DNA of 53,354 nucleotides, taken from positions 1-53,354 of the forward strand of contig JAFTCX010000028.1 in NCBI GenBank assembly GCA_017454485.1, in the 5' to 3' direction. Positions 1-2,619 of the stretch are shown one piece after another (position 1 is the first letter of the stretch; each line of letters starts with the position of its first letter). The stretch is from Clostridia bacterium. Lineage in GTDB: Bacteria; Bacillota; Clostridia; Oscillospirales; Acutalibacteraceae. The notes beneath the pieces were generated by a model that was not told the DNA's origin, ran no database searches, and was given only the letters and a program-made list of their open reading frames with translations. The position numbers were made by a program, and so were the translations under genes.

Positions 1-229
1 GTTGATTTCCGGCGAAGATCAAACGCTGCTGATCGGGCGCAATGCCCTCTTTTTCCTGAATCTTCTGCTTGATATTCTCCACCGTATCGTTGGGTTCCAC
101 ATCGAGCGTGACGGTTTTGCCTGTCAGGGTACGCACAAAAATCTGCATGGCAAAGGCGTTGACGGAAAAGAGCGCCGTCAGCACAAGAACGAGCACGAGG
201 GTGAAAAGCTTTGTTACTGTTTTTTTCAT
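1..229 (-). CDS. Secreted ubiquitin homologue (3' end outside window)
   Basis: The 76 visible codons encode a signal peptide of about 27 residues (basic MKK start, Leu/Val-rich core, ending NAFA), then a sequence that begins [15 protein letters not shown] and continues through [16 protein letters not shown]. Against eukaryotic ubiquitin from memory, 39 of 49 residues match. Differences include K6R, S20N, A28Q, P37A and K48N. Lys11, Lys27, Lys29, Lys33, Leu8 and Ile44 are kept. The A-F-A site would release a mature protein starting exactly at ubiquitin Met1. Start ATG at 229 follows AGGAGA at 235-240. It lies 29 bp after the prfB stop with no terminator between, so prfB readthrough is likely. 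The C-terminal tail, which would decide whether it can be conjugated, is not visible. Function is unknown. Exported ubiquitin is known from Bacteroides fragilis; transfer from a eukaryote is an inference. Confidence 0.93.
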
Positions 230-258
230 GAGATTCTCCTTCTTCTTTTTATTCTTAT

Positions 259-1386
259 TTACTGCTCGCTGCTTTGCAGCGCGTCGAGCGACTGCTTTTT
301 CAGATAGGCGTTGATGAAGCCGTCCAGATCGCCGTCCATCACAGCGTTGATGTTGCCCATCTCGTAGCCCGTGCGGTGATCCTTCGCAAGCGTATACGGC
401 ATGAACACATAGGAACGGATCTGGCTGCCCCAGCCGATCTCCTTCTGGTCGCCCTTGATGTCCTCAATTTTATCCAGATGCTCGCGCTCCTTGATTTCGA
501 TGAGCTTGGACTTGAGCATACGCATACAGACCTCTCGGTTCTGATGCTGGCTGCGCTCCACCTGACAGGACACGACGATGCCCGTGGGAATATGGATCAA
601 GCGCACGGCGGAGGACGTTTTGTTGACCTTCTGTCCGCCTGCGCCGGAGGCACGGTAGACCTCCATTTTGATGTCTTCGGGCTTGATCTCGACCTCGATG
701 GTATCGTCAATTTCCGGCATGACCTCGAGCGAGGCGAAGGAGGTGTGGCGGCGTCCGGAGGAATCGAACGGCGACACGCGCACCAGACGGTGCACGCCCA
801 TTTCGCTCTTGAGATAGCCGTAGGCGTTTTCGCCCTCCACAACCACAACCGCAGATTTCAAGCCGGCCTCGTCGCCGTCCAGAAAATCCACCGTTGTGAA
901 CTTGTAGCCGTGCTTCGTCGCCCACTGGTTATACATACGGAACAGCATCTGGCACCAGTCCTGCGCCTCGGTTCCGCCTGCGCCGGCGTGGAAGGTCAAA
1001 ATGGCGTTCAGTCCGTCATATTCGCCGGACAGCAGCGTGGCAAGCGTTTGCTTTTCCAGCTCGGCTTCCACAGCCTCCACGCTTTCGCGGCAGTCGTCAA
1101 GCAGATCAAGATCGCCCTCCTCGTCGGAAAGCTCGATCATCACCAGCGCGTCGTCAAACGCGGTCTTCAGGTCGTTATAGGCTTTGATTTTGTTTTTGAG
1201 CATGGAGATGCGCTGCAGCACCTTTTGCGAGCCCGCAAGGTCGCCCCAAAACGCCTCGTCGGTCGTTTTTGCTTCCAGCGTTTCCAGCTCCTGCTGCATC
1301 TCGCTCAGGCCGACCGCCGAAGCAAGCTCCTGCAGCGGCTTTTCGCTTTCCAGCAAACGTAAACGTAATTCTTCAAATTGAATCAT
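259..1386 (-). CDS. prfB: Peptide chain release factor 2
   Basis: Class I release factor that recognises UGA and UAA stop codons and triggers peptidyl-tRNA hydrolysis in the ribosome. The 375-residue protein has the RF2-type anticodon tripeptide in [14 protein letters not shown] and the catalytic GGQ motif in [15 protein letters not shown]. The start is ATG at 1386, opening [13 protein letters not shown], with AGGAAA about 8 bases upstream; an in-frame extension to 1446 has no ribosome binding site. The gene is in a single frame: the usual in-frame UGA programmed frameshift near codon 25 is absent, so autoregulation by frameshifting is not expected. The secreted ubiquitin gene follows 29 bp downstream. 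Confidence 0.96.
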
Positions 1387-1425
1387 GGCAATGGTTTCCT
1401 TTCTGCCGAACAATATACAGATTAT

Positions 1426-1453
1426 ATTATACACGAATATTTCCAATGTGCAA
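1426..1453 (-). promoter_or_regulatory. Predicted sigma-A promoter of prfB-ubiquitin unit
   Basis: On the minus strand TTGCAC and TATAAT are separated by 16 bp, about 40 bp upstream of the prfB start. It is divergent from the promoter at 1507-1534. Confidence 0.6.
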
Positions 1454-1566: not shown

Positions 1567-2619
1567 ATGGACTATCGAAACCGAATTTGTGACGCCTGCG
1601 GTCTGCCCTTGCGCGAAGACGAAGACGTTGTGGTTTGCCCGGACTGCGGAACGCCGCAGCACCGCGCCTGTTTTGAAAAAAACGGGCAATGTATCCACGC
1701 CGACCGCCACGGCGAAAACTTTGATTGGAGCGCTGAAGCGGGCGAAGCGCCGATGCAAAAAAACGGCGCACGCTGCCCCGTCTGCGGCCACGAAAACGCG
1801 CCGAACGCCACCGAATGTGCGCGCTGCGGCCAGCCGTTTTCCGACGAAGCGCCCATGCTTTCACGCCCCTTTTCTCCGCAGCAAACCGTCAGCGCCGCCC
1901 GCCTTGTGGAGGATTTGTTTTTTGACGCGCCGAACGGCGAAGCGGAGCTTGCGCTTGACGACGACGAGCGCGAGCAGGTGGAATTTGTGCTCTCGCAGCG
2001 GATGCTGCAGGCCACGCCCGGCATGACCGAAGCGCAAACGCAGGAAAAGCTTTGCGGCCACCCCCTGCGGCAGGTGATGACGTTTCTTTCCTCCCATGCG
2101 CTCACCTTTGTCAATAAATTCCGCAAATTGGAAAACGGCAGCGCCTTCACCTGGAACTGGGCCGCGTTTTTCCTGACGCCCTATTGGTTCTTTTACCGCA
2201 AGCTCTATAAGCCCGGCATCGTGGTGCTGACCGTGCGCATCTGCCTTGCCATTGCAGTCTACGGCCCCGTCACCCGCGTGAGCGAGCTGATGATGACGCT
2301 CTCTCAAGCCGCGCAGGACGGTTCGCTCACCGAGGCGATGTATGCGTCCACCATGGAACAGATCAGCACCTATGCGCCGGTGATGATCGTTTCGCTCGGC
2401 GTCTTGCTGCTGCTGGCTTTTCTTTCCGGCCTGCTGGCCGACCGACTGTATCACCGCCATGTGCAGCGCACGCTCGACCGGCTCAAGCAACTGGAAAGCC
2501 GCGACGCCTTTTTGGTTCATTTTCTGCGAAACAGTGCGGTCAGTCCCCTGCTTGCCGCAGTGAGCTACGCCGCAATTTCCATCATTCCGAATCTGATTAT
2601 GACATTCGTTGTCCGTTAG
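1567..2619 (+). CDS. RING-like / zinc-ribbon membrane protein (Prok-RING_1 with DUF2628-like C-terminus)
   Basis: A 350-residue protein. The N-terminus carries a cross-brace-like Cys/His array: C8-x2-C11, C24-x2-C27, H32-x2-C35, then C42 and H44. This is the spacing expected of a prokaryotic RING-finger family. A separate zinc ribbon follows (C70, C73, C84, C87). After an acidic linker, three hydrophobic blocks at roughly 195-235, 275-300 and 323-350 resemble DUF2628 membrane proteins. ATG at 1567 has AAAGGA about 7 bases upstream. galU starts 10 bp after its stop, so the two are probably cotranscribed. From memory, the bacterial RING family is sometimes found near ubiquitin-system genes, which makes the secreted ubiquitin 1.3 kb away notable. 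The RING part should be cytosolic, however, while the ubiquitin is exported. E3 activity is not shown. Confidence 0.72.
   Translation: MDYRNRICDACGLPLREDEDVVVCPDCGTPQHRACFEKNGQCIHADRHGENFDWSAEAGEAPMQKNGARCPVCGHENAPNATECARCGQPFSDEAPMLSRPFSPQQTVSAARLVEDLFFDAPNGEAELALDDDEREQVEFVLSQRMLQATPGMTEAQTQEKLCGHPLRQVMTFLSSHALTFVNKFRKLENGSAFTWNWAAFFLTPYWFFYRKLYKPGIVVLTVRICLAIAVYGPVTRVSELMMTLSQAAQDGSLTEAMYASTMEQISTYAPVMIVSLGVLLLLAFLSGLLADRLYHRHVQRTLDRLKQLESRDAFLVHFLRNSAVSPLLAAVSYAAISIIPNLIMTFVVR

What the first reader, a model, noticed from the sequence alone, without database searches (positions are those of the whole stretch)
1..229. Exported, nearly eukaryotic ubiquitin encoded by a Clostridium-type bacterium
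The gene encodes a signal peptide that ends in A-F-A directly before ubiquitin Met1. Of the first 49 mature residues, 39 match human ubiquitin, including the Leu8/Ile44 patch. Lys48 is Asn and Lys6 is Arg, while Lys11, 27, 29 and 33 remain. Loss of the main degradation-linkage lysine with retention of the interaction surface fits a secreted decoy or chain terminator acting on host or microbial eukaryote ubiquitin enzymes.
Basis: partly seen in the sequence, partly recalled or inferred. Interest (0 to 1): 0.95.

Follow-up and report, generated by a model that had tools for sequence, protein, structure and literature searches.

The report
Bacterial exported protein carrying ubiquitin
A gut-type bacterium has the start of a gene for ubiquitin, normally a eukaryotic protein tag, fitted with an export signal; complete relatives mostly carry ubiquitin at the front end of longer exported proteins rather than as a free tag, and its job is unknown.

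Summary
An ORF at window 229..2 (-) has a Shine-Dalgarno site and a signal peptide ending AFA directly before ubiquitin Met1; 39 of 49 residues match human ubiquitin (Pfam E 2.4e-18). The contig then ends. Neighbouring genes are bacterial. The Lys48->Asn change rests on a codon at window bases 5-7, and another contig of the same genome reads Lys there.

Eight of 33 other genomes of the genus have a ubiquitin-domain gene, against 4 of 393 others drawn from the order. A species-genome scan gave at least 441 relatives; I examined the best 80. Sixty-six have a recognisable signal peptide; 60 of these continue at least 40 residues past ubiquitin, only 10 keep Gly75-Gly76. Of 32 sequences scanned, 19 carry another module (dockerin, autotransporter, S-layer, LRR and others). 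In a sister lineage of the genus ubiquitin is the most constrained part (median pN/pS 0.16, tail 0.60); that lineage groups with Entamoeba ubiquitin.

Best reading: ubiquitin acquired from eukaryotes and displayed outside the cell as a non-covalent ligand. The decoy/chain-terminator reading is not supported: the conjugation end is mostly lost and the Ile44 patch is not specially conserved. Partner unknown. Secreted B. fragilis ubiquitin is the known precedent.

The parts
149..229 (-). Signal peptide [27 protein letters not shown]; cleavage after AFA would leave ubiquitin Met1 as mature N-terminus
   Evidence: a signal-peptidase-like motif directly before Met1 in 56 of 66 exported relatives by a lenient pattern; by eye and heuristic, not SignalP
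2..148 (-). Ubiquitin domain residues 1-49, cut by the contig end
   Evidence: PF00240 E 2.4e-18; 39/49 identical to human
5..7 (-). Codon 48 (AAT, Asn), 4 bases from the contig end; contig C64 has AAA (Lys) at the matching place
236..241 (-). Shine-Dalgarno AAGGAG, 6 nt before the ATG
   Evidence: sequence printed
259..1446 (-). Release factor gene (prfB type) directly upstream on the same strand, 29 bp gap; shows bacterial context; its place beside the ubiquitin gene is peculiar to the window
   Evidence: PF03462 and PF00472; the only release-factor match among ORFs of at least 90 aa in the loci then held was 36% identical, in L045; flanks of the unnamed genus loci L003-L012 were only about 1-1.5 kb

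Best explanation
The window holds the 5' end of a gene for an exported protein whose mature N-terminus is a eukaryote-derived ubiquitin domain. Shown by sequence: export signal, ubiquitin identity, bacterial context, patchy occurrence in the genus, constraint on the domain, and in many relatives a second, mostly surface-type module. Inferred: ubiquitin was acquired from eukaryotes (Entamoeba-like for one lineage of the genus; donor of the window's Arg6 lineage unknown), placed behind a Sec signal peptide, and presented at the exposed end of a cell-surface protein, for the window gene perhaps Ub plus an LRR-like region if contig C64 is its continuation or sister. It would act by non-covalent binding through its folded surface, not by conjugation, and in several relatives under a dedicated regulator. 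The most likely partner is a ubiquitin-binding protein met outside the bacterium, for example of grazing or co-resident protists; that last step is a guess (about 0.4), with competitor bacteria next.
For: Exported architecture: 66 of 80 loci by heuristic, four more by eye; 60 of the 66 continue at least 40 residues past ubiquitin. Of 32 ubiquitin sequences scanned with Pfam (chosen by me, window and C64 included), 19 have a non-ubiquitin module at or above cut-off: dockerin 4, autotransporter 4, SLH 1, LRR 2, others 8. Model of the L073 protein matches autotransporter EstA over the barrel and, separately, ubiquitin (TMt up to 0.97). Constraint: five genus genes of the Entamoeba-type lineage, 10 pairs, median pN/pS Ub 0.16, signal peptide 0.35, tail 0.60, Ub below tail in 10 of 10; eight Methylophilaceae genes, 28 pairs, Ub 0.26 vs downstream 0.55, Ub lower in 28 of 28 (44 of 44 with two doubtful rows kept). 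Window Ub 1-49 versus L035: pS 0.57, pN 0.057. GG kept in 10 of 66. 4GSW, E. histolytica ubiquitin, is the best single-domain PDB match of the L075-type domain, 145.3 vs 132.8 bits for human; starred clade in the tree. In the short genus proteins (about 145 aa) ubiquitin is the only Pfam domain (L075; L004 is the same DNA). Linked regulators: divergent LytTR gene 120-186 bp from the ubiquitin gene in 7 distinct loci (1.67 kb in an eighth), TetR gene overlapping or 4 bp upstream in 2 distinct loci, 209 bp in a third.
Against: The window's own C-terminus is unknown, and the window gene lacks the LytTR neighbour of its lineage: only domain-level LytTR hits in the own genome. The Ile44 patch is not conserved above other non-core sites, so there is no evidence for a eukaryotic ubiquitin-binding partner. 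Surface location is inferred, not shown. 13 of 32 scanned sequences have no second Pfam domain above cut-off. In 1 of 10 genus pairs the signal peptide has a lower pN/pS than Ub. In several chosen clostridial pairs pS of Ub and of the rest differ strongly (for example 0.16 vs 0.67, and 0.24 vs 0.10), hinting at domain swapping, so fusion age is unsure there. Bacteria from soil and water have it too. AlphaFold of L035 was poor (mean pLDDT 56). The C64 tail is not among the 19 tail hits of the own genome.
Confidence: 0.55

Rival explanations
1. Antibacterial factor like B. fragilis BfUbb: the exported ubiquitin inhibits competitor strains by an unknown mechanism.
For: BfUbb is secreted, its signal peptide cleavage also falls at ubiquitin residue 1, it lacks the terminal Gly and it inhibits other B. 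fragilis strains (PMC5705921, Discussion read; passages). Patchy occurrence in the genus (8 of 33 others) fits a competition factor; BfUbb too seems to need no immunity gene (same Discussion).
Against: BfUbb is free-standing; 60 of 66 exported relatives here continue at least 40 residues, many into anchoring modules.
Confidence: 0.2
2. Structural cap: the very stable ubiquitin fold protects or spaces the N-terminus of exported proteins; no specific partner.
For: Ile44 patch not specially conserved; core and F4 patch most conserved (0.875 and 0.881); ubiquitin is combined with many unrelated modules.
Against: The fold alone would probably tolerate more drift than pN/pS 0.06-0.22 at pS 0.35-0.78; proteins of about 145 aa have little else to protect; linked regulators suggest controlled use.
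Confidence: 0.25
3. First reader's decoy or chain terminator acting inside eukaryotic cells on E1/E2/E3 enzymes.
For: BfUbb can covalently bind human E1 and inhibits ubiquitination in vitro (PMC3352274, passages). Arg72 often kept (0.71).
Against: GG mostly lost, domain mostly the front of a longer exported protein; K48N insecure. No search for a delivery system was made.
Confidence: 0.07
4. Artefact: eukaryotic contamination or a chimeric contig.
For: The contig end lies in the gene; 10 of the 80 loci show no signal peptide and some look eukaryotic (for example polyubiquitin in L066).
Against: Bacterial signal peptide, Shine-Dalgarno and release factor gene on the same contig; homologues in the genus and on plasmid pRUMAL01 of R. 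albus 7, annotated 'ubiquitin family protein'; 14 of 15 rechecked source genomes have one copy, one has three.
Confidence: 0.02

Closest known systems
Bacteroides fragilis BfUbb (ubb)
   Same: Eukaryote-like ubiquitin with signal peptide cleaved exactly at residue 1; gut bacterium; no usable Gly-Gly end (PMC5705921 Discussion; PMC3352274 passages)
   Different: BfUbb is free-standing with a C-terminal Cys; relatives of the window gene mostly continue into tails or modules. The BfUbb sequence was not compared here.
Ruminococcus albus 7 WP_013483628.1, 'ubiquitin family protein' on plasmid pRUMAL01
   Same: Cultured Oscillospiraceae by NCBI name; signal peptide ending ANA directly before Met1, then a second region like that of signal-peptide neighbours without ubiquitin
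   Different: Lys6 type, not Arg6; on a plasmid; next to dockerin and PI-PLC genes
Eukaryotic ubiquitin, including Entamoeba histolytica ubiquitin (PDB 4GSW)
   Same: Sequence; L075-type domain nearest to 4GSW
   Different: Eukaryotic ubiquitin is conjugated through Gly76 inside cells; here exported and Gly76 mostly missing
Secreted ubiquitin of the nematode Globodera rostochiensis
   Same: Signal peptide plus ubiquitin plus C-terminal extension used outside the cell (as described in PMC5705921 Discussion)
   Different: Eukaryotic plant parasite; the extension is 12 aa and cleaved in the plant

Membership tests
Ubiquitin family (PF00240) | Sequence match above curated cut-off | tested here: met
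   66.1 bits vs 25.4 for residues 1-49; second half unseen in the window
Conjugable ubiquitin | Free C-terminal Gly75-Gly76 | tested here: inconclusive
   Window cut at residue 49; relatives: GG in 10 of 66; C64 reads LRLPSG and continues
Conjugable ubiquitin | E1/E2/E3 machinery in the organism | tested here: inconclusive
   E2 model PF00179: no hit in own genome (87% complete), 2 of 34 genomes hit; ThiF/E1-like 2 above cut-off in own genome, as in 11 of 14 controls; E3s not searched
Conjugable ubiquitin | Deubiquitinase in the organism | tested here: inconclusive
   UCH model found nothing in own genome nor in any control, so the search is uninformative
BfUbb-type exported bacterial ubiquitin | Signal peptide cleaved at ubiquitin residue 1 | tested here: met
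   AFA|Met1 in sequence, by eye; no SignalP, no protein data
BfUbb-type exported bacterial ubiquitin | Free-standing with C-terminal Cys | tested here: inconclusive
   C-terminus unseen; five complete genus relatives have extensions, two of them ending in Cys (L007, L009)
BfUbb-type exported bacterial ubiquitin | Inhibits related strains | not testable with these tools
   Needs bench work
Injected ubiquitin decoy | Delivery into eukaryotic cells | not tested
   No secretion-system search made; signal peptides point to Sec export

The most novel reading that the evidence does not exclude
Surface-displayed ubiquitin is a recurrent invention: bacteria and archaea of several phyla have repeatedly captured eukaryotic ubiquitin, kept it under purifying selection, and mounted it at the exposed N-terminus of exported proteins through whatever anchor they own (autotransporter, S-layer, dockerin, LRR and tail), often beside a dedicated regulator, to engage ubiquitin-binding proteins of protists or other eukaryotes met in rumen, soil and water.
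Probability: 0.35. Interest if true: 0.92.

Novelty: new variant of a known kind. Interest (0 to 1): 0.74.

Why it matters
The BfUbb paper calls B. fragilis one of a few bacteria with a eukaryote-like ubiquitin (PMC5705921). Here such domains occur at no fewer than 441 places in species genomes (some surely contaminants), and in the 80 examined mostly as the front module of longer exported proteins, constrained in the two groups tested. If there is a partner, ubiquitin has an extracellular life in bacteria independent of conjugation. R. albus 7, a cultured bacterium, makes the question testable now.

Tried and rejected
Eukaryotic contamination of the window: rejected. prfB as a linked partner: not supported. 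Phage carriage: no match in 50,697 phage records. Third copy in the own genome: none found. Lys48 loss as a signature: dropped. Ile44-patch selection: tested and not found; in the biased set of 70 it looked high (0.95 and 0.94), which I do not rely on. Structure of the LRR relative L035: too poor to use. Donor of the Arg6 lineage: no clear nearest PDB chain. The unknown protein beside Ub-autotransporter genes looked SET-like to me by eye; no Pfam hit in 4 of 4 and no PDB hit, so dropped. Papers on exported bacterial ubiquitin beyond BfUbb: none seen in the listings (open-access library only; most listed papers not opened); PMC3463472 is not held. PMC10579323, passages: eukaryotic-like genes in clostridial endosymbionts of termite protists, ubiquitinyl hydrolases but no ubiquitin mentioned in the passages.

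Biases: the 80 loci are the most query-like of 441 confirmed places and had to match DYNIQKE or MQIFV[KR][TN][LI]; the 26 pairs and the 32 Pfam-scanned sequences were picked by me. HMM-found sets are less biased. Loci dropped from the exported counts: the 10 of 80 with no signal peptide by heuristic or eye (L043, L044, L047, L052, L054, L060, L066, L067, L083, L089). L013, L014, L050 and L071 failed the heuristic and were added by eye, giving 70. The 56-of-66 motif count is lenient: L020, L027, L065, L082 and L085 may be cleaved earlier. L053 has a stop at ubiquitin residue 74. In one search, 1 of 45 pairs was dropped (no synonymous difference), L105 has a different downstream part and L106/L107 are near-identical; one search leaves out L105 and L107. 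L010 was left out as nearly the same as L012; one search leaves out the Arg6-type L005 and L006.

Full report
What is there. The window is one whole contig (G000:C86) of a 2.42 Mb draft genome in 90 contigs, 87% complete. At its left end, on the minus strand, an ORF starts at 229 and runs off the contig at base 2. It has a Shine-Dalgarno AAGGAG 6 nt before its ATG, a 27-residue signal peptide ending AFA, then ubiquitin from Met1 to Gln49. Pfam ubiquitin scores 66.1 bits; 39 of 49 residues equal human ubiquitin. Nearby genes are ordinary bacterial ones: release factor, nucleotidyltransferase, GAPDH.

What is not secure. The contig ends at residue 49. Another contig of the same genome, C64, starts within a ubiquitin C-terminal half that reads Lys48, continues through LRLPSG into a leucine-rich-repeat-like region and ends in a hydrophobic tail (436 aa open frame; LRR_4 25.1 bits, just below its cut-off of 27). 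Laid together by eye, 13 of 14 bases of the two ends agree, the mismatch being codon 48; a script found no exact overlap. They may be one gene split by the assembler or two genes. RUG12588 has three ubiquitin matches, two of them very alike (L025, L035); in G004 and G019 the second match is a divergent internal domain. No third copy was found in the own genome. I left the pieces apart.

Distribution. With the Pfam model, 8 of 33 other genomes of the genus have a match (G010 only the divergent internal one) and 0 of 25 genomes of other genera in the same draw. In a wider draw from the order, 5 of 394 including the own genome. None of 50,697 phage records; 2 of 72,556 plasmid records, one of them R. 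albus 7 pRUMAL01 at 81% identity, the other 46%. By record title they are rumen and gut Clostridia first, then Dyella, Conexibacter, Leeia, Loktanella, Sphingomonas, Methylotenera, Akkermansiaceae, Methanothrix and others. Fifteen source genomes rechecked whole: 14 have one ubiquitin match, one has three. Methylophilaceae: 10 of 187 genomes; Dyella: 2 of 6.

Architecture. By a home-made heuristic 66 of 80 loci are exported; in 56 of the 66 a signal-peptidase-like motif sits directly before Met1 (lenient pattern), and 10 of 66 keep Gly75-Gly76. Sixty of the 66 continue at least 40 residues past residue 76. Four more loci were accepted by eye. Of 32 ubiquitin sequences scanned with Pfam (window and C64 included), 19 have a non-ubiquitin module at or above cut-off: dockerin in L018, L020, L026, L065; autotransporter in L037, L059, L061, L073; SLH in L039; LRR in L013, L023; Glug in L048, L049; and one each with SdrD_B, Big_2/Flg_new, YDG/MBG, FGE-sulfatase, CBM_X2 and Cthe_2159. 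Thirteen have none. A model of the L073 protein (mean pLDDT 74, pTM 0.60) matches autotransporter EstA over the barrel and solved ubiquitins over the N-terminal domain. In the genus the short proteins (about 145 aa) are signal peptide, ubiquitin, linker and tail. A model of such tails finds 19 places in the own genome at E up to 0.1 (4 below 0.001); 18 end an ORF, by eye, 14 with a CxxC motif. The C64 tail is not among them.

Neighbours. In the Arg6 lineage a divergently transcribed LytTR-type regulator lies 120-186 bp from the ubiquitin gene in L013, L014, L016, L028, L034, L041 and L046, and 1.67 kb away in L023 (L006 and L005 are the same DNA as L013 and L014). It accompanies both LRR-type and dockerin-type genes. 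Among 59 relatives a near-identical homologue (92-100%) occurs in G004 and G019, the two with such a gene, and a 53-aa piece at 94% in G023, which has no ubiquitin match; the own genome has only domain-level hits. So the window gene, with prfB upstream, lacks it. In the Entamoeba-type lineage a TetR-family gene lies directly upstream: gap 4 bp in L075 (= L004), 4-bp overlap in L008, 209 bp in L003. Four Ub-autotransporter-type loci (L037, L050, L069, L071) have an unknown protein of about 330 aa next door in differing orientation.

Selection. In five genus genes of the Entamoeba-type lineage (10 pairs) median pN/pS is 0.16 for ubiquitin, 0.35 for the signal peptide and 0.60 for the tail, with Ub pS 0.35-0.78; Ub is below the tail in 10 of 10, below the signal peptide in 9 of 10. 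In eight Methylophilaceae genes found by HMM (28 pairs) medians are 0.26 and 0.55, Ub lower in 28 of 28. In 26 pairs chosen by me Ub is lower in 26, though in several of these pS differs much between the two parts, which hints at swapping of the domain. The window's 49 codons differ from L035 at pS 0.57 and pN 0.057. Where downstream parts are homologous and pS agrees, as in Methylophilaceae, the constraint probably acted after the fusion, inside bacteria. Against a specific eukaryotic partner: in 24 HMM-found sequences the Ile44 patch (0.755) is not above random non-core positions (p about 0.76), Gly76 is 0.04 and Arg72 0.71. Site groups were assigned from memory.

Origin. The tree of 94 domains has few columns, mostly open forks and an unsettled bootstrap, but one starred branch (100/99) joins Entamoeba ubiquitin with seven bacterial domains: five of the window's genus (L003, L007, L008, L009, and L075, the same DNA as L004 of G015) and two goat-gut Clostridia by title. 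The window's fragment by its substitutions (R6, V13, I26, Q28, E32) belongs to the other, Arg6 lineage of rumen Clostridia; it was not placed in the tree and its donor is unknown. So the genus probably received ubiquitin at least twice (inference).

Mechanism. Shown by sequence: export signal, ubiquitin identity, constraint, fusion to further modules in many relatives, loss of the conjugation end in most. Inferred: display at the outside and non-covalent binding. Guess: a protist partner (about 0.4), against a competitor bacterium as for BfUbb, or no partner at all. The precedent is B. fragilis BfUbb, secreted, cleaved at residue 1 and inhibitory to other strains (PMC5705921, Discussion read, passages; PMC3352274, passages).

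Verdict.

Noticed in passing
window 1567-2619 (+): Prok-RING_1 (75.8 bits) plus DUF2628 protein about 1.3 kb from the ubiquitin gene. Possibly coincidence; a RING-like protein near a ubiquitin gene deserves a check in relatives.
   Followed up: partly
own genome, loci L118-L136: A C-terminal signature like CxxCGxxHxGFFGxIIxFFHxIL ends an ORF at 18 of 19 hits (14 with CxxC), many of them long; perhaps an undescribed sorting or anchoring tail of this group.
   Followed up: partly
L013:8774-9658 (-), L016:8892-9731 (-) and equivalents: LytTR-type regulator with an uncharacterised N-terminal half, divergent to exported ubiquitin genes in 8 distinct loci.
   Followed up: partly
L071:11198-12202, L069:8738-9742, L050:3609-4607 (-), L037:200-1189 (-): Unknown protein of about 330 aa next to exported ubiquitin genes in different orientations; no Pfam or PDB match.
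   Followed up: partly
L114:1327-3231 (G001) and L115 (G010): 634-aa protein in G001 (a like open frame in G010) with an E2-like UBC domain, hydrophobic segments and a C-terminal FHA domain; 2 of 34 genomes.
   Followed up: partly
L113 (R. albus 7 pRUMAL01): The ubiquitin-family gene lies among small signal-peptide proteins, a dockerin protein and a PI-specific phospholipase C gene.
   Followed up: partly
L021 and L080: Signal peptide directly before ubiquitin in contigs titled Methanothrix and Methanotrichaceae (archaea); in L021 fused to SdrD_B and DUF11 repeats.
   Followed up: partly
L073, L037, L059, L061 (Pfam-tested); L050, L071, L101-L103, L106-L110 (by similarity or length): Ubiquitin as passenger of small autotransporters, mostly in Betaproteobacteria by title, including copies about 60% identical to human (L109, L110).
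   Followed up: partly
L010, L011, L012: Divergent ubiquitin-like domain inside long proteins of the same genus, not at the N-terminus.
   Followed up: no
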